Source: an uncultured Holophagaceae bacterium (lineage in GTDB: Bacteria > Acidobacteriota > Holophagae > Holophagales > Holophagaceae). Taken from it: a stretch of 64,000 bases of DNA. Made by a program: the position numbers and the translations under genes. The notes under the pieces were generated by a model. The model saw only the letters and a program-made list of their open reading frames with translations. It was not told where the DNA came from and did not search any database. Shown here piece by piece: positions 37,317 through 49,600 of the stretch. Where the stretch lies: NCBI GenBank assembly GCA_903913215.1, contig CAIWKE010000008.1:1-64000 (forward strand), in the 5' to 3' direction. Numbering within the stretch: position 1 is the stretch's first letter; the number at the start of each line of letters is the position of its first letter.

Positions 37317-40300
37317 TCATTCACAGGGCACCAAGCGCCTAGACCCGCCCCTCTGGGTTTCCCGGGCCAATTTGGACTCGTACAAACGATGGAGGAATTC
37401 CATCAGCACCCACTCCTGCTCCCGCTGATTGGTCTGGAGAAGGCGATTCAGGTGCATATGCGCGAGGCTACAGGCGATCGTACGGATGTCCTCCTGGAGC
37501 CAGCCCTGCTCCGAGGCCTTCCGCAGTTGGGCCAAGGGGCCATACAGATTGGCGACTGGCGAGGTCAGCTCACAGGGTATGGTTGTCTCGAACTCTCGTC
37601 GAAATCTTCGGAATTGCTGGCCGATTTGAGGAGGGACTCCCCCCATCCCAAGAAACTCATTTCGAAAGGAATCCAAGGATGACTTGGCCAAATCCACCCG
37701 TTGAGGCAGATCAAAGCCGAGCGCTGCCCAGATGGCATCCACCTCAACCAGGCCTGACTTCCATCGTTCCTTGGGTTCATGGTTCAATGCGATCTGTTCC
37801 AGGACCCGCTGGCTGTCGGCCTGGAACCACCCGGTGGCCAGATCGAAGCCAATGGTCCCTCCGTACCGCTCCAGCTCAGGTTCAAAGGTATCAATCTGCA
37901 CTTTCCACAGCAGGCCTTGGCTTAGGCTCGACTCCAGAGCCTGGGTGATCCGGGGGAGCAAAGCCGATAGCAACCTCCCTTGCTCCCCATGGAAGCGAAG
38001 CCTCAGGTGGTGCGATGGGTCCCAGTACCTGACAAAGTGCCATCGGTCCCAAAGGTGTTCAGCCCCCGTCATCCAGAGCAGTGGCTCCAACACCTGAAGC
38101 AAACGATCTGCCGAGGCAGTCCCACAGTACAGCTTTAGGTAAAGCCACTCCGATCCGGGTGGGAACCCTCGAAATCCCGCGGTCAACGAGATCTGTCCCA
38201 GGGGTGCCTTCTGCCGATGTGGGATAGCTGTCGCTTCAAATGGGACCACCAGCTCGTGGGCAAACCGCCCTTCTGGCGAAGTCACGAGGGCCTGACCTGG
38301 GTCGGGAAAGCATTCGGTCAGGTGGAACACTGGACGATTCGCGACGAGGTGGCATAGTGCTTCGACCCGAGTCACCTGATCCAGGTCCACCAGTAGGTGG
38401 TTGTCGGCATCGACCAGTACTACCAACCTTGGGAGTCCCCGACGTTCCCGCAAGAGTTGAAAGGCCTCCCATGGAAGGTCTTCGGATGCTGCAAGGGCGT
38501 CCTTCAATTCTCTCGCGTCGATCCTCCAGCGTGCCTTGCTGAGAACCTGCCTTCCGTAGACAACCCTGGGCAGGAAGGGGGATTCGGCCAGAGACCCCCA
38601 GGACCAGCCCCCCGGGCGGCCATCCTGATCTTGGAGATGGGATAGGAACCGATAGACAACCGGCCCTCGCCGAAAATTGTGTGCGGAGGACAGCCTGGGG
38701 ATGACCTCGCGACCAAGCCTTTTCGAGGCGAGGAACACCCTCCCCCGGCGGACAGTTACCAATAGGTCGTCAGGCCGAAGGGTGTGGTCCTCGGAAACAC
38801 CGGAGTTGGCAAGATAGGGAATCTCGTAGGCCCGGAGCACTGGACGGGCCAGCACATTTCCCATTCTTCCCTCTGGGCTATACGTCACCTCCGCGAAAAT
38901 GGCCTCAGGGAAGGCAGCTTCCTCCTTTTGCAAGTGGTCCCTGAGTGCATCCTCCAAGTTGCGGTCACCCCAGGCAAACCGACCTAGCCACCTGGCGGCG
39001 GTGGGTCCAGAGTACTGGTCCATGAAGAACTTGAATTCGCCTTGATCCAAGGCCCCCAGGCTGGAAGCGGAGAGGCAGGCGAGGGCTGCGAACGACTGAG
39101 CGAATGGTTCCGGGTTTGGGTTCTCCAACCCCGCCATATCCTCGTCGTTCAATTCCCAGATCAATGTCCCCTGCCAGCGGGGGCACTGTCCCAAAAGGAA
39201 TACATCCCGTTGAGACAGTGCCTTCGGACGCGATGAGGAATTGAAGGGCATTCCCTCCAGCAGGGTTGAGTCCATCGGGGGGGCCCCGTCGAACCCAATG
39301 CCGCTTTCCTCGTCGAGGGCCTCCAGGAGCGGTACCCAGCGATCGCCATATCGCTCCGTGAAGGCAGTCCCGAACCGATCCAGGGAGCCTTCCTGCGGCG
39401 CTGGTGTGAGCCTTCGGAGGGTTTCGGCTCCCTTCTCCAGCTCAGCGGAGACGGTCCGCGAAAGGGCAAGACCCGGAGCCGCTTTGAACCAATCCACCTG
39501 TACTTGGTTTCCAGATGCTGGTGCCAGCCCAAGGGAGGCCAATAATGCCGAAATCCCTTCGCCCCAGCCTTGACCTCCCGCGTCAGGTGACGTCTCGAAT
39601 CGCCTCAACTCCGCCCCCAGGAATTCAAGGGGCTTTGCGAGCAACCCCGCCTCCGGGGTTCGGAGCAGGGCATCAATCACGTGTCTTAAGGGATCCGGGC
39701 AGGATAGCGGGGGATGCAGGTCACTTTGCAGCACCTGGGCATCGATCAATGTGTCGAGGTATTCCCGGGCCTCCCGGTGTCCGACACCGGTAGAGGCAAC
39801 CAAGGCCTTTGTGAGTGGCTCCAGCCGCGCACCGGAGCGGCTCTCCTTCAAGATGAGATCCAGGTGCGTGGTGGCCTCGACTACTTCCAGGTGAAAGATC
39901 GCCTCGCTTCCCGGGAGGGTTCTCCGCTCCAGGTACCGATATCCCCGGCCTAGGCGGTAGAGGCTGGTGTTTGGGCGGTAAAGGGCACCGGAACGCACTG
40001 CCGGCTCCCGCTCGAGCTGGCCAACGATGGATTCAATCACCCCCCAATCCAAACGAGCGGCCTTCCGGCCTGCCGAGGCTGGGCCGAGGGTCAATTGGCC
40101 GTTTGCGCCCCATTCACCGATGGTGACCCCTGCAAAGAGGCCGAAGGGTGTCGATCGGCTGGACATTCGGCTCAGATATTTCACCAAGGATCGCTCGACT
40201 CCCTGGGCCGCCTTCCCTGTCAAGGATCCATCCAGCCAGGCTGGAATCCGAAGGTCCAGGTCTGGAGAGGCCAGGGCAATGGCAGTCCGCACCTCCTCGC

Positions 40301-40484
40301 AACGCACCAAGCCGCGAAGAATTTGGCGGAATTGCTCCCGGTTTCCCGGGGGAGGATCAGGAGCCAACCCTATTGCCCCCTGCCCCGCTTGCCCGCAGGA
40401 ACTCGAAGAGAGGCTGTCCACCGGCAGGCTCGGTGTGCGGAGCATAAAAAAGCCTGCGGTTCTGCATGTGGGCCGGAAGGACAT
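37317..40484 (-). CDS. Full-length LanB-type lantibiotic dehydratase
   Basis: The 1,055-residue product has the class I lanthipeptide dehydratase plan. The N-terminal glutamylation domain (about 15-710) has the start motif FFMLRTPSLPVDSL, LSRMSSRSTPFGLFAGV, a GRMGNVLARPVLRAYEIPYL region and RGRVFLASKRLGREVIPRLSS. The C-terminal elimination (SpaB_C/thiopeptide-type) domain (about 765-1,030) has SEWLYLKLYCGTASADRLL, WHFVRYWDPSHHLRLRFHG and DTFEPELERYGG. It would use glutamyl-tRNA to dehydrate Ser/Thr in a precursor peptide. No LanC cyclase, protease or transporter is nearby. The precursor candidate is divergent at 40686. A start at internal Met 14 is also possible, as neither ATG has a strong ribosome site. 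Confidence 0.9.
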   Translation of the reverse strand: MSFRPTCRTAGFFMLRTPSLPVDSLSSSSCGQAGQGAIGLAPDPPPGNREQFRQILRGLVRCEEVRTAIALASPDLDLRIPAWLDGSLTGKAAQGVERSLVKYLSRMSSRSTPFGLFAGVTIGEWGANGQLTLGPASAGRKAARLDWGVIESIVGQLEREPAVRSGALYRPNTSLYRLGRGYRYLERRTLPGSEAIFHLEVVEATTHLDLILKESRSGARLEPLTKALVASTGVGHREAREYLDTLIDAQVLQSDLHPPLSCPDPLRHVIDALLRTPEAGLLAKPLEFLGAELRRFETSPDAGGQGWGEGISALLASLGLAPASGNQVQVDWFKAAPGLALSRTVSAELEKGAETLRRLTPAPQEGSLDRFGTAFTERYGDRWVPLLEALDEESGIGFDGAPPMDSTLLEGMPFNSSSRPKALSQRDVFLLGQCPRWQGTLIWELNDEDMAGLENPNPEPFAQSFAALACLSASSLGALDQGEFKFFMDQYSGPTAARWLGRFAWGDRNLEDALRDHLQKEEAAFPEAIFAEVTYSPEGRMGNVLARPVLRAYEIPYLANSGVSEDHTLRPDDLLVTVRRGRVFLASKRLGREVIPRLSSAHNFRRGPVVYRFLSHLQDQDGRPGGWSWGSLAESPFLPRVVYGRQVLSKARWRIDARELKDALAASEDLPWEAFQLLRERRGLPRLVVLVDADNHLLVDLDQVTRVEALCHLVANRPVFHLTECFPDPGQALVTSPEGRFAHELVVPFEATAIPHRQKAPLGQISLTAGFRGFPPGSEWLYLKLYCGTASADRLLQVLEPLLWMTGAEHLWDRWHFVRYWDPSHHLRLRFHGEQGRLLSALLPRITQALESSLSQGLLWKVQIDTFEPELERYGGTIGFDLATGWFQADSQRVLEQIALNHEPKERWKSGLVEVDAIWAALGFDLPQRVDLAKSSLDSFRNEFLGMGGVPPQIGQQFRRFRREFETTIPCELTSPVANLYGPLAQLRKASEQGWLQEDIRTIACSLAHMHLNRLLQTNQREQEWVLMEFLHRLYESKLARETQRGGSRRLVPCE

Positions 40485-42961: not shown

Positions 42962-44320
42962 TCAGCCCTTTCTGGACAAGTACCACACCCTGAGACTCTC
43001 GAAACTAATTGCCGACCGCCGCAGCCAATGGTCATCCTTCATTTGCACATATGAGGTGAACCGTGCCAGATGTGGCTTGAGTTGTTTCCGGATTGCCTTG
43101 CTCCCCATTATTTCTGCAGCTCGATGTGCGTATGACAGGAAGTTCCGGCGCCCTAAATAGGTGTACCGCCGATGCAAAGCCTTGGTCCTCATTTTCGTCT
43201 GAGTACCAGCCTCCAGATCGGCCCCTTTCCGCGCCCGATCCACGGCGCGCACACCACGGCGCATCTTGGCGTAATAGCGGCTTAACGCGACGGTCCGGAG
43301 GCGAATCGACTTCCCATCGAAAAGGAACCCAAGGTATTGAACTGGTCTCTGCTCCTTGCAGACCAGCGCCCCATTGACACGTCTGAATTGATGAATGGTC
43401 GATTTCGTGGAATGAATCTCAAGTTTCAGTTTGGCGATTTCCACCTTGATGAGTGCTTCTATGTCCACCCCACTCCCATCAGGAACCACACAGACAATGT
43501 CATCGCAGTAGCGACGGTAAATCCCACCAAGGTTCCGAACCGCAGCCGCAACTGCCAGGTCGAAGTCCATCATGTACAGGTTAGATAGAAGGGCGCTGAT
43601 AGGACTCCCTTGTGGGATACCTTTTGTTTCCCATTCGGCAGAATTGGAGTCTGTATGCCTATGAATCAAGCCTGCGTCGCGGATACGTTCTCGGAATTCA
43701 TCGGCTTCACAGATATGTCTGCGCTTGAAGGCTCCACCTTCGGGTGAGCTTATCTCAAATGCGAGAAATGCGGCAACTCGGTCCACATACGAATATCGGG
43801 TAATGGACTTGAAGATGCTGTAGTGATCGACTGGGAGCCCCTGGGTTCCAAGAAGACGCTCCCACAACCGCTTGAGAATCTTGTGATCTAGGTTCTCAAA
43901 GAACGAACTGACATCGAAGGTGTGCACGGTGCACTGCTCGTGCTTTCCGATTTCTTGAAAGACCTCATGGGCAAAATGGATATTGCACATGCCCCGGCTC
44001 TTCCTGAAGGCAGTCACGCACTCGGAGATGCCAAGCCGATCTAGGAGCGACTCATAAATGCTCCCCAGCTTCTCCGAGTAATAGAAATACAACGCGGCGT
44101 CTTTATGAGCCGCGTAATAAATCGGACGCTTCTTTGTATCGGGTACCAACGATCCGTCCACCTGCCGCTTCACCCGAACTTTCTCTAGATCTATGTGCAG
44201 GAAGGGCATGAAGGACCATCGCGCAACCCTGTCCGGATCGGACACCATTGCTAACGCCACATCGCCAAAGAAGGGGCGATCAAAGTGCAGATACCTACGC
44301 TCTTGGATTTCGAGCTTCAT
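42962..44320 (-). CDS. Defence-type (unknown-group) reverse transcriptase, DRT2-like
   Basis: The 452-residue product has reverse transcriptase motifs: TVHTFDVSSFFENLDH (motif A Asp), GIPQGSPISALLSNLYM (motif B), IYRRYCDDIVCVV (motif C as Y-C-D-D, not Y-A-D-D) and QRPVQYLGFLFDG (motif D/E). The N-terminal region (RPIYYAAHKDAALYFYYSEK, GMCNIHFAHEVFQEI) and LPVDHYSIFKSITRYSYVDR look like the single-gene antiviral RTs of the UG2/DRT2 group as I remember them. There is no maturase or endonuclease domain, so it is not a group II intron, and no retron msr/msd layout is obvious. A strong hairpin and a stop-free frame lie just upstream. Confidence 0.82.
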   Translation of the reverse strand: MKLEIQERRYLHFDRPFFGDVALAMVSDPDRVARWSFMPFLHIDLEKVRVKRQVDGSLVPDTKKRPIYYAAHKDAALYFYYSEKLGSIYESLLDRLGISECVTAFRKSRGMCNIHFAHEVFQEIGKHEQCTVHTFDVSSFFENLDHKILKRLWERLLGTQGLPVDHYSIFKSITRYSYVDRVAAFLAFEISSPEGGAFKRRHICEADEFRERIRDAGLIHRHTDSNSAEWETKGIPQGSPISALLSNLYMMDFDLAVAAAVRNLGGIYRRYCDDIVCVVPDGSGVDIEALIKVEIAKLKLEIHSTKSTIHQFRRVNGALVCKEQRPVQYLGFLFDGKSIRLRTVALSRYYAKMRRGVRAVDRARKGADLEAGTQTKMRTKALHRRYTYLGRRNFLSYAHRAAEIMGSKAIRKQLKPHLARFTSYVQMKDDHWLRRSAISFESLRVWYLSRKG

Positions 44321-44640
44321 GGCGATAAATTCCGATCGCCTAGGGCTGAACTGAGGAGGGTAGGTGGCGGCCGTCCATGGGACCCTCCTCAGTTACTACT
44401 TCCTCTCGGAAGTTGATGACTACGCACAAAGTTAAACCCTGAACGCAGTGCCGCAGTGCAAGCCTGATGCGGTATCTTTGCTCTCAGGTGGAGGTCTCGA
44501 TGAGCCCGAAGGTCCATGGTCCCGGCTCCTGGGTGGCAGTCCTCGCGGCGTGTGCCGGGAGGGTTGCCTTTGCAAAAATCCCCCTCCATCCAAGTCGATG
44601 AAGGCAGTGTAAGCCTATTCCTGACCTTTAGGGCTTGCAA
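44321..44640 (-). ncRNA. Candidate structured RNA/template region upstream of the reverse transcriptase
   Basis: On the minus strand this leader holds, in order toward the RT gene: a tandem GCACTGCG-GCACTGCG, a CTTCC-GAGA-GGAAG tetraloop hairpin, and a 13-bp perfect stem AACTGAGGAGGGT/ACCCTCCTCAGTT (44382-44394 with 44349-44361) around a 20-base loop, ending 28 bases before the RT start. One minus-strand frame (44389-44640) has no stop codon. DRT2 systems use such an upstream RNA as a template for a concatemeric, stop-free gene; the match here is by layout only. Confidence 0.45.
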
Positions 44641-44797: not shown

Positions 44798-44938
44798 GCG
44801 CCCGGTCATGAACCCCTCGATGGAGGGAGTTCACGATCGGGACAAACGGCAAGGTGAAAATCAGAAGTGGCCGAGGCCCCGTTCTTTCATTACCAAAAAG
44901 CAGGCAGGATCTTCTCTCAAACAGAGGCAGAGGAGAAG
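44798..44938. repeat. About 140-bp repeat, copy A
   Basis: Starts GCGCCCGGTCATGAACCCC and runs through GGGACAAACGGCAAGGTGAA and CTTCTCTCAAACAGAGGCAG. It matches copy B (45524-45664) over its length with scattered changes and a few small gaps. The rest of 44641-45671 shows no gene; open frames there are short and not protein-like. Confidence 0.7.
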
Positions 44939-45523: not shown

Positions 45524-45664
45524 GCGCCCGGCCATGAGCCCCCGCGATGACGGGGGGGCTCACGACCGGGACAAACGGCAGGGTGAAAAACAGAAAGGGG
45601 CCGAGGCCCCTTTCTTGAATTGCCGAAAAGAGGGAGGGTCTTCTCTCGAACTCCGGCAGAGAAG
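45524..45664. repeat. About 140-bp repeat, copy B, containing the terminator of the Sel1 gene
   Basis: Starts GCGCCCGGCCATGAGCCCC, contains GGGACAAACGGCAGGGTGAA and ends CTTCTCTCGAACTCCGGCAG. It lies directly after the Sel1-like gene on the minus strand. It includes the perfect stem at 45594-45613 and another stem TGAGCCCCC/GGGGGCTCA (45535-45562). Copy A seems a decayed duplicate of this gene end. Confidence 0.7.
45594..45613 (-). terminator. Intrinsic terminator after the Ig-protein/Sel1 operon
   Basis: AAAGGGGCC-TC-GGCCCCTTT (read on the minus strand) is a perfect 9-bp stem followed by CTGTTTTT. It lies about 58 bases after the Sel1 stop codon. Confidence 0.8.
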
Positions 45665-45671
45665 TGTTTTC

Positions 45672-46589
45672 TCAGAACGGGGGTAGGCCGTTGGGGCGCG
45701 GCGGCAATTGGCCACTTTCTTGGAGGTCTTCCAGGAGTTCCATAACTTCCTGTTTACCAATTCGAACAATGGCCCTATCCCACCATTGCCAAGCCATCGT
45801 TGGATCGTAATGGATAAAGGTCAGAAGAACCCGCTGTCCATCCTTCGTTGCGTACTCCCTTCCGATCCTCACCAGGCTTGAAGGATCTCCGGCATTCCCG
45901 GCCACTTGAAGCCACTTCCATGCTTCACGCTGTTCATCTTCGGTCCTTCTTGTCGAGTCAGTCAGGAGGCTACCTAAGGCCGCAGCAGCGGGGATGTGTC
46001 CTCTTTCCGCAGCCATCCTTAACCAGTACTCGGTGGTATGGGTGCCTTGTATAGATGGTTGTGAATCACCGGTGCGCCCACCGCTCCACATCCCAGCTAA
46101 ATACATAGCCTCCACATCCCCTTGGCCTGCTCTCGATTCAAAACCCTCCACAGCCTTGGTGTGCCAGTGCTGGGATTCCTTTGCATCCTGTTGCTTTAGT
46201 AACACGACTTCTGACCATTTAGCCTGCGCTTCTGCATACCCTAGGTTTGCCGCCCTTCGTATCAACTCTTCACCACGAATCTTCATCACGGGGTCCGTCA
46301 GTTGGTGATAATCCCGACTCCCCAAAAACAAGATGGCTCGTGGGTCTCCGGCCTTTGCCAAAGTGCCCATCTCCTTCATGAGAGCCTTTTCACCCATTTG
46401 AAATGGTTCAGGCAAGCGCAATTTCTGCGCATGATCATTCGCTTTGAGCCTGTCGAAGATGTCGCCCTTTGCCCCCTTTTCAATGGCTTTTTGGAGGTAG
46501 GGAGGCTTCGATTCCCCAGGGCTTGGAGATTGGCAGAAAGCCATCGATGAAATAACCAGGACTAAGACACTTTCAAGTTGATTTGACAT
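45672..46589 (-). CDS. Secreted Sel1-repeat (TPR-like) protein
   Basis: The 305-residue product starts MSNQLESVLVLVISSMAFCQ, a signal peptide with possible lipid-free cleavage after FCQ. At least four Sel1-type repeats follow: RRAANLGYAEAQAKW, RAGQGDVEAMYLAG, RMAAERGHIPAAAALGSLL and QVAGNAGDPSSLVRIG. Sel1 repeats make a solenoid for protein-protein contacts. GGAG six bases before ATG 46589 sets the start. It is 34 bases downstream of the giant Ig-protein gene, so the two are probably co-expressed and may interact in the periplasm or outside. Confidence 0.82.
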   Translation of the reverse strand: MSNQLESVLVLVISSMAFCQSPSPGESKPPYLQKAIEKGAKGDIFDRLKANDHAQKLRLPEPFQMGEKALMKEMGTLAKAGDPRAILFLGSRDYHQLTDPVMKIRGEELIRRAANLGYAEAQAKWSEVVLLKQQDAKESQHWHTKAVEGFESRAGQGDVEAMYLAGMWSGGRTGDSQPSIQGTHTTEYWLRMAAERGHIPAAAALGSLLTDSTRRTEDEQREAWKWLQVAGNAGDPSSLVRIGREYATKDGQRVLLTFIHYDPTMAWQWWDRAIVRIGKQEVMELLEDLQESGQLPPRPNGLPPF

Positions 46590-46623
46590 TAGAAGCTCCA
46601 TGCAATCATACGAACCACTCAAA

Positions 46624-49600
46624 TTAAGGGGCAATTTTTAAATGTAAATGATCACTATGGTTAGTTATGGACCAAGGTTGAAAACGGGTTGCATACTGAG
46701 ATGCCCATCCACCAACGCCATCTAAATCCACGGAGCCTGACTGCTGAAGGACATTCCCTTGTGCGTCCTTTCTCGCATAGGCGTCACAACGGCCTAGCGT
46801 AAGCAACTGATATAGCTGGAAACTATCGCAATAGAGTTCGGTCCCTTGCGGGTTTGGGCTGGTAATCATGTAGATCATCGCTTGACTTCGATTTCCTGCT
46901 GGTAGGGCCCCCAAAATCGATACCGACCGAGTCCGCGCTGCATTGACCCAACCACTGAGGAGTTGAATCGCTTGGGCCGGTGTAGTCTTCGGATCTGTAT
47001 AGTCCTTTCGGGCGATTTGCAGGTATGGAATCAAGTACTGATCTCTAAAACCTCCCCCGCTCACGCCAGGGGAATCTGGGCCTGTGAATGCTTGGTATCC
47101 GGGATGAAACATGTCAATTCGATCCCCGGTGAAATGTTCCCCTCCGTGGCCGGTATTTCTTCCGTGCTCAAGCGTGATGTCATTCACTGGTCCAAGTGAG
47201 CTTCGATGACTAGGGTCCGAGAGCCAGTCAAAGGTGGCCTTGTTGACCCACTTATCGTTATTCCAGCTCCCAAACCAACTGTTCCGGAAAAACTGAGCAG
47301 TCGACCAGTGTGCTTGAAGGCGGGGGTGGTCCACTGGGATTTCAAAGGGCTGGGAAATGGGCAACCCTAGGAAACTGTAATGAAGCTTGAATTTGTAGGT
47401 CACGGTATCCGATGGCGGAGAAACAACCACGCCGCCGATCATTCCATAGTTGATGGTTGACGGGCGATTTGCATCAAATGTCACGCGGACCCGATAGTAC
47501 TCAATCAAGTTATTTCGTTGCGAATTTAGAGTGCCAATATCCACAGGTCGCCACCCTCCCTGCTGGATCCACTGCTTTCGAGAAGCCTCAAAGGCCTTCT
47601 CTTGGCCCCAATCATTTAGCGAAAATTGGTCCTCGGGGAGAAGCGCGTCCAGTTGAATCTCAGGTTCTTGAAGTGGGATGACTTCTGGGGGGAGAACTTG
47701 CTCAGCACCATCGAACCCATTCCCTAATCCGAACTTCACGGGCTCGTTCACAAGCACATCTTGGGTTTGCCCCCCGGTCTGTATCGACACAGTCACACCA
47801 GTGACCATGTGGTTCTTTGATGGCTTTTGAACCTTTAAAATGAAATACCTATGACGCCTGTTCACCCCCGCCCAAAGGCTTTGGGTCCCTGGTGTCTGGT
47901 CAGCGCCAACAGGTAGCGGGACGCTGATTCGCGCACTGGCAGGCATAGTCAAGTTCGGGGTTCCGGATATCTGAGTAACATCCGGAAATGGGATTAGATC
48001 CCCTGCGGGTGTAGTTGTGACAGACCTTAAAGCGGCTTCTTCAGGTTCGGGCTGCCAAACTCGCCAAGCAGAGTTCAGCACACCAAATACAGTGGTCGGC
48101 GTTGCCGAAGGCGCAGCTGCTGCCGCAGTCGTAGCGCCGAGTTTGCCCGCAGCCATCTTTAACTTTCCATTTCCGACTAGAGATGCCTGAGCAGCGGGTG
48201 CATCAGAAGTGATCTGAGTTCCGGCAATAAACACGCTCCCATCTGGCAGTAATGCAAGTTTTGGATCTTGGAGTCCATAGCCGAGATCATCCATGACGGA
48301 CCATGAATTTGTATCCGGATCAAAGAGTTCCGTCTCAGGATTCCAATCAATGACAGCAGAACCATCAGCATTGACGGTTTGTGATGCATAACCACCAACG
48401 ACTAAGACTTTGCCAGTTGGTAGCAGAATCGCATCATGGCCGCTTCTTGGCGACTTCATACCCGGAATCGGAGCCACCAACCCAGTATTTGCATCGAAAA
48501 AGGTTGAACTGAACAGCCCAGTGGCCGGGTCAAAAATTTCAACTGTATTTGTCGGCTTGAAAAAATATTTCCCGTTGATTTTTGTGTAGGTGGTTGAACT
48601 TCCACCAGCCACCAACACTCGTCCATCGGCTAACCGTGTTGCGGTCGCCTCGACTCGCTTGGTGCCCATGGGCCCAACGGGGCTGAACCCTGTCTGAGGA
48701 TTGTAGATAGTCGCGGATGAATCGATACAGGAGTCTGGATTGGGCCCCATAGGGCCTGGCACGAACCCTCCAACGACGAGGGCCCTACCATCACTAAGGG
48801 TTGTCGCGGCGGGCCACTGTCCAATACCTACCCCATATGATGGACTTGCAGGATCCGGCATGCCGACATTGGCAATCAGATCACTCAGCAATCCGGTAGC
48901 AGGGGTAAATAAGGTTTGTTTAGTGAAATCTACCATTCCTCCGACTAACAGCGCTGTCCCATCACCCAGGGCCACTCCAACACCACCTTCATGGTAGGTG
49001 GTTGCTCCCATCCCGCCCGGAATAAGGGAATCTGGCAGTCGTCCCGGGAGGAGTTGGAAGGCTCCCAGCAGAGGGTTATATATCTGGGCAAAAGACAGTT
49101 TGTTCGAGATCAGAGAGCCATCTTCCCGAGTGAGTTTGCCCACACCGTTTGCAATGAGCACCCGTCCATCATTCAGCTTGGTGGCTATATGCCAGGCTCT
49201 TCCTGCTGAAACAATGCAGGACACTCCAAGCACGGAATACCTGGTCTCCAGCATGGATCCAGTCTGGGTGAAGGCTTTGGTGGTTGGATCATATAAATAG
49301 CAATCACTCAGGTAGGACGAGCCATCCCAGCCACCTGCGATGAGGAGTTTGCCACTGTTGAGGGCTGTGACAGTGTACCCCTGGCGTTGCAGGGCCACCG
49401 GGGTTGCGTCAGCCAACGTATCCACACTTGATAACACCACGACGACGGCAGAACCCCAGGATGTCCCGTCAGCCACACTTGTCGCAACCACCTGATATTG
49501 ACCGCTCCTGGAAGCGACAAAGATTCCCTGGCCATCTACAAAAGCTGTCGATGGATTCCCAGCCACCTTCCAGGTGACGGCCTGGTTGTCTGATATTCCA

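What the first reader, a model, noticed from the sequence alone, without database searches (positions are those of the whole stretch)
42962..44640. DRT2-like reverse transcriptase with a structured, stop-free leader
The RT has the Y-C-D-D motif and N-terminal features of single-gene antiviral RTs. Its leader has a 13-bp perfect hairpin, a tetraloop hairpin, a tandem octamer and a 250-base frame without stop codons. In DRT2 an upstream RNA is copied by rolling-circle into a concatemer with an endless frame; the layout here fits that idea in a new lineage.
Basis: partly seen in the sequence, partly recalled or inferred. Interest (0 to 1): 0.8.

Follow-up and report, generated by a model that had tools for sequence, protein, structure and literature searches.

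The report
DRT2 defence with altered jump motif
This is a bacterial anti-phage reverse transcriptase of the known DRT2 kind, whose guide RNA very probably makes a hidden repeating toxin gene (114-base units) by rolling-circle copying, but with a different three-base 'jump' signal (TTG) from the ACA described for studied systems.

Summary
The RT (42962-44320, minus) is a full-length Drt2: 494.8 bits against the 390-bit NCBIfam cut-off, E about 1e-96 to solved DRT2 structures. Retron and group II intron models score far lower. The leader is the DRT2 ncRNA. The tetraloop hairpin sits where the 'buttress' should.

Aligned to canonical DRT2s, the template is bracketed by TTG/TTG instead of ACA/ACA, exactly 114 nt (38 codons) apart. 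Joining the ends puts -35-like and -10-like hexamers 17 bp apart, then GGAGG and ATG, and opens one frame across the junction in the canonical phase.

All seven clade members keep a length divisible by 3 and that open frame; one has TTA/TTA. Family-wide the two motifs co-vary. All is inferred from sequence; no RNA, cDNA or protein was measured. Verdict: a DRT2 member with a variant template-jump motif, from outside the clade studied so far.

The parts
42962..44320 (-). drt2: antiviral reverse transcriptase, 452 aa
   Evidence: NCBIfam NF041746 494.8 bits, cut-off 390; PADLOC Drt2; solved DRT2 chains E about 1e-96
44345..44611 (-). DRT2-type ncRNA (ends approximate)
   Evidence: tower hit of a covariance model built without this clade; fold z -3.57; alignment to relatives
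44612..44640 (-). possible ncRNA promoter: TTGCAA, 17 nt, TAGGCT (weak, inferred)
   Evidence: read from sequence by alignment with L108; below the threshold of the promoter scan
44583..44604 (-). 5' handle hairpin, 8 bp
   Evidence: fold, stem-loop, same place in relatives
44573..44575 (-). motif 1 (TTG), in the place of ACA-1; last bases copied
   Evidence: geometry scan, clade comparison
44459..44461 (-). motif 2 (TTG), in the place of ACA-2; where the cDNA end is proposed to re-pair
44462..44575 (+). template / neo repeat unit, 114 bp = 38 codons, no stop in the frame starting at 44464 when joined head to tail
44564..44569 (+). -35-like TTGCCT (works only with the -10 of the next repeat)
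44473..44478 (+). -10-like TATCTT, 17 bp after the -35 across the junction
44490..44502 (+). GGAGG ribosome-binding site and ATG start of neo
44419..44449 (-). scaffold hairpin 3' of motif 2
   Evidence: fold only
44398..44413 (-). GAGA-loop hairpin, buttress position
   Evidence: fold, short hairpins in the same place in relatives
44349..44394 (-). tower hairpin, 13 bp, GCCGC in the loop

Best explanation
This is a DRT2 anti-phage system. The ncRNA (about 44611 to 44345, minus) is bound by the Drt2 RT through its 5' handle and 3' hairpins (shown by homology and fold, not by binding). The RT copies the 114-nt template (44575 to 44462 read in the RNA), and the cDNA's terminal CAA re-pairs with the second TTG beside the template start, so copying begins again and yields tandem 114-bp repeats (inferred). 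Each repeat junction brings -35-like TTGCCT and -10-like TATCTT to 17 bp spacing and joins one reading frame, so that the double-stranded concatemer is transcribed and translated into a Neo protein of 38-residue repeats that arrests infected cells (inferred from the studied Klebsiella system). The difference from studied DRT2s is the jump motif: TTG/TTG instead of ACA/ACA, shared with a small clade.
For: RT over the Drt2 cut-off. Tower found by a model trained without this clade, only hit in 64 kb, E = 0.01. Motif spacing 114 = 3 x 38; junction spacer 17 bp split 6+11 exactly as in canonical loci; GGAGG and ATG follow; the frame is open in the family's phase. The combined score is unmatched in 3000 shuffles and 1256 other stretches. 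Seven of seven clade members have lengths divisible by 3 and the same phase open; L022 TTG/TTG against its sister L052 TTA/TTA. Control scan that ignored motif, length and frame recovers matching motifs only at the right register across the family. Motif co-variation: 167 of 186 positions match, permutation maximum 135.
Against: Nothing was measured. The junction promoter is weak (4 of 6 in each hexamer). An open antisense frame alone is poor evidence in GC-rich DNA (44% of shuffled units open in this phase). The score was put together after seeing the family geometry, and with promoter anchors alone the window has four tied solutions. L108, the nearest relative, has TTG/TTA, and its best-scoring alternative is a 131-nt unit that is not divisible by 3. 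The pseudoknot was not tested.
Confidence: 0.82

Rival explanations
1. A DRT2 RT and ncRNA that make concatemeric cDNA, but with another boundary or without an endless Neo, as left open by Tang et al. for divergent DRT2 clades.
For: Tang et al. report Neo annotation as more challenging in divergent clades. Weak junction promoter. Four Pseudomonas loci have a 125-nt unit whose frame ends, so an endless frame is not universal.
Against: Unit divisible by 3 with the family's phase open in seven of seven clade members, and paired motif changes.
Confidence: 0.12
2. The jump uses the longer near-repeat AGGCTTACACTGC / AGGCTTGCACTGC (44616-44604 and 44465-44453, minus), giving a 151-nt unit.
For: 12 of 13 bases match; it is the second-best candidate in the scan, unit 151.
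Against: The first copy lies 5' of the handle hairpin, at the predicted RNA start; 151 is not divisible by 3; L108 lacks the repeat.
Confidence: 0.03
3. A decayed or silent DRT2 copy.
For: Only this genome of 47 searched in the genus carries it; weak promoter elements.
Against: Intact full-length ORF and catalytic residues, tower, matching motifs and open neo frame.
Confidence: 0.03

Closest known systems
Klebsiella pneumoniae DRT2 (UG2 RT; Wilkinson et al. 2024, PMC12039810; Tang et al. 2024, PMC11100668)
   Same: Single RT gene with an upstream ncRNA of similar size; tower hairpin; template flanked by two short matching motifs; -35 and -10 permuted so that they meet at 17 bp only across a junction; unit divisible by 3; neo antisense to the ncRNA.
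   Different: Motif TTG instead of ACA; unit 114 instead of 120 nt; weaker promoter hexamers; RTs of the sampled family are only about 40-48% identical to this one (42-43% to the nearest gammaproteobacterial ones).
DRT2 loci L108, L011, L018, L022, L052, L123 (same clade)
   Same: TTG-type motif pair, same geometry and reading phase, GCCGC tower loop.
   Different: Units of 123-129 nt; L052 TTA/TTA; L108 TTG/TTA.
Telomerase RNA alignment region (analogy, drawn in PMC12039810)
   Same: The nascent DNA end re-pairs with a short second copy of the template edge to start the next repeat.
   Different: Works-like only, not a relative: different RT lineage, much longer template, and a product that codes for a protein.

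Membership tests
DRT2 (UG2) | RT over the curated Drt2 model cut-off | tested here: met
   494.8 bits against 390
DRT2 (UG2) | Catalytic aspartates and YCDD | tested here: met
   D136, D273 and D274 invariant in the alignment
DRT2 (UG2) | Upstream ncRNA with tower hairpin | tested here: met
   only hit of an independent model, 44351-44392 (-), E 0.01; 10 of 11 model pairs show two-sided changes in 30 loci
DRT2 (UG2) | 5' handle and buttress hairpins | tested here: inconclusive
   present by fold and position; not covered by the model hit
DRT2 (UG2) | Pseudoknot around the thumb | not tested
   no pseudoknot-aware comparison was made
DRT2 (UG2) | Two matching motifs bracketing the template | tested here: met
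   TTG/TTG, followed by CA/CA
DRT2 (UG2) | The motif is ACA (typical of the studied clade) | tested here: not met
   TTG; other loci also differ: GCA, ATA, TTA. Taken as a feature of the studied clade, not as defining the family
DRT2 (UG2) | Promoter rebuilt across the junction at 17 bp | tested here: inconclusive
   spacing exact, hexamers only 4 of 6 each
DRT2 (UG2) | Unit divisible by 3 with an open antisense frame | tested here: met
   114 nt, same phase as the family
DRT2 (UG2) | Concatemeric cDNA, Neo toxicity and phage defence | not testable with these tools
   needs experiments
Retron or group II intron RT | Best match, over cut-off, to retron or maturase models | tested here: not met
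   70.9 bits against 300 (group II), 53.5 against 235 (retron St85)

The most novel reading that the evidence does not exclude
The DRT2 template-jump signal is not a fixed ACA but a pair of short alignment motifs that drift together (ACA, GCA, ATA, TTG, TTA, perhaps TAA and CTT), like the alignment region of telomerase RNA. This locus belongs to a clade that switched both copies to TTG while keeping the promoter spacing and the reading phase of neo, so the endless-ORF mechanism extends to clades in which Neo was hard to annotate.
Probability: 0.7. Interest if true: 0.6.

Novelty: new variant of a known kind. Interest (0 to 1): 0.5.

Why it matters
It separates what DRT2 seems to need (two matching motifs at fixed positions, 17-bp promoter spacing, unit divisible by 3) from what is only typical of the studied clade (ACA). 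That gives a simple rule for finding hidden neo genes in divergent DRT2 systems, and a clean test of the re-pairing model: change both motifs together.

Tried and rejected
Single-protein scans of the genome and viral collections found no relative; an alignment query did. Rfam gave only tRNAs. The tandem octamer and the 151-nt near-repeat were considered as jump sites and rejected (not conserved, outside the handle, not divisible by 3). A scan with promoter anchors alone did not decide the window (four ties). The L072/L067/L084 and L051/L059/L077 subclades and several remote DRT2s could not be resolved with this geometry. The final Science version of Tang et al. is not held and supplements could not be opened, so an earlier description of non-ACA motifs there cannot be excluded. 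Structure prediction of a concatenated Neo was not attempted because a concatemer is not the window's own sequence; the RT was not modelled because solved DRT2 structures match it directly.

Full report
Observation. The minus-strand ORF 42962-44320 encodes 452 residues with YCDD. As RNA, 44340-44612 (-) folds with z = -3.57. The sense-strand open frame (44389-44640) and the tandem octamer are present but carry little weight: long chance ORFs abound here, and a shuffled 114-nt unit is open in some frame 87% of the time.

What the RT is. NCBIfam Drt2 scores 494.8 bits against a curated 390; group II and retron models are far below their cut-offs. PADLOC agrees, and solved DRT2 chains match residues 6-425 at about 1e-96. 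In a tree of 98 Drt2 proteins it pairs with L108, from a genome of the same family (about 48% identity), then L011 and three Dyella proteins, with moderate support (SH-aLRT 90-92, a quick tree). It is rare nearby: 1 of 47 genomes searched in the genus, 2 of 93 in the class, and 1 of 396 in an even draw from the phylum (the window's own genome counted each time).

What the leader is. The published DRT2 architecture (PMC12039810; PMC11100668) is: a 280-nt ncRNA upstream of the RT; a 120-nt template flanked by ACA motifs; a 5' handle; a 3' tower, buttress and pseudoknot; neo antisense to the ncRNA; and -35 and -10 elements that meet at 17 bp only across a repeat junction. I aligned the scaffolds of 30 canonical DRT2s, leaving out this clade. 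RNAalifold finds the tower and its inner helix, with 10 of 11 pairs showing two-sided changes that keep pairing. The model built from it hits once in the 64-kb window: 44351-44392 (-), 17.5 bits, E = 0.01. The rest of the scaffold is too diverged for that model; a 5' handle (44583-44604) and a short hairpin in the buttress position are seen by folding and by place.

The hidden gene. In canonical loci motif 1 lies 3 nt before the reverse complement of the -35, and motif 2 lies 11 nt after the reverse complement of the -10 and just before a GCGGC-like block. Applied to the window this gives TTG (44575-44573) and TTG (44461-44459), 114 nt apart. The joined junction reads TTGCCT-TTGCAA|GCCTGATGCGG-TATCTT: the 17-bp spacer is split 6+11 exactly as in canonical systems (for example L012: TTGACA-ACCTGT|TAGAAATGACG-TATCAT). 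GGAGG and ATG follow at 44490-44502 (+), and the frame runs on through the junction: LMRYLCSQVEVSMSPKVHGPGSWVAVLAACAGRVAFAS per repeat. On the chromosome no promoter-like pair is found, as expected for a permuted promoter.

Controls. The window's score (24) is reached by 0 of 3000 dinucleotide shuffles and by 0 of 1256 other 400-base stretches of the window; I put the score together after seeing the family geometry, so this is supportive rather than formal. A cleaner test ignores motif identity, length and frame: among 54 well-scored loci, 46 have a length divisible by 3 and the same phase open, and across 68 loci the motif match appears only at register 0 (mean 2.0 of 3, against 0.4-1.1 at other registers). 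In that stripped-down scan the window itself has four tied solutions, 114 among them.

The variant. Six relatives share the TTG-type motif: L011, L018, L022 and L123 TTG/TTG; L052 TTA/TTA; L108 TTG/TTA. Their units are 123-129 nt, all divisible by 3 and open in the family's phase. L108 was placed by alignment with the window, as its top-scoring candidate was a 131-nt unit; L123 was read by eye from the same landmarks. L022 and L052 are sisters that differ by a paired change in both motifs. Across 62 loci the two motifs match at 167 of 186 positions (permutation mean 112, maximum 135); motif identity entered the choice of some of these loci, and related loci are not independent. Where motif 1 is ACA and motif 2 differs at position 1 or 2, motif 2 is GCA or ATA, which still pairs with the TGT end of the cDNA by a G-T wobble; the reverse arrangement, which would not pair, was not seen. 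Third-position mismatches occur (L108, L046, L049, L081, L101), and one related pair (L029, L071: TGA/TAA) breaks the rule. On the whole this is what the published re-pairing model predicts for the end of the nascent cDNA.

How it most likely works. Shown by sequence: Drt2 RT, ncRNA tower, paired motifs, divisible unit, open frame. Inferred from the Klebsiella system: RNP formation, RNA-primed copying, repeated jumping from TTG to TTG, second strand, transcription from the junction promoter, translation of a hydrophobic repeat protein (GRAVY 0.67 here, mean of 61 predicted Neo repeats 0.77, shuffled 0.06 +/- 0.38, 7% of shuffles as high) and growth arrest. The promoter hexamers are weak (8 of 12), which is the main soft spot.

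Novelty. It belongs to DRT2 by its RT and ncRNA, while the ACA feature is not met. Tang et al. (preprint) report ACA motifs as strongly conserved and Neo annotation as more challenging in divergent clades. I found no paper in the library that describes non-ACA motifs, but the final Science article and the supplements could not be read. I therefore call it a new variant of a known kind.

Noticed in passing
L042, L044, L055, L056 (Pseudomonas; ncRNA at about -244 to -118 from the RT start): The same geometry gives a 125-nt unit, not divisible by 3, in all four related loci. The frame starting at the ATG crosses the junction (WLDNLLELTY.VSITIT.GGSQ) and then meets a stop, so these systems may encode a finite, junction-spanning Neo of about 40 residues instead of an endless one.
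   Followed up: partly
L073, L085, L081, L101, L046, L029, L071: Further candidate jump motifs outside ACA (CTT/CTT, TAA/TAA, TTA/TTC, TAA/TAC, GCT/GCC, TGA/TAA), all with units divisible by 3 and the family's phase open.
   Followed up: partly
44825-44935 and 45554-45664: A 111-nt direct repeat (73% identical, 729 bases apart) just upstream of the ncRNA, with diverged copies elsewhere in the genome (contigs 27 and 13); the nature of the repeat is unknown.
   Followed up: partly
45672-46634 (-): The neighbouring gene (320 aa, weak Sel1/TPR match) is found in no other searched genome of the genus at E <= 1e-40, while the LytTR response regulator on the other side has relatives in most of them; this stretch looks strain-specific.
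   Followed up: partly
37317-40484 (-): A lantibiotic dehydratase-like protein (Pfam Lant_dehydr_N and _C) of 1055 aa.
   Followed up: no
G000 contig 11, 262848-263279 (+), locus L002: A second RT-like ORF in the same genome (457-aa open frame, 53.5 bits to Drt2, below the cut-off), so another kind of RT.
   Followed up: no
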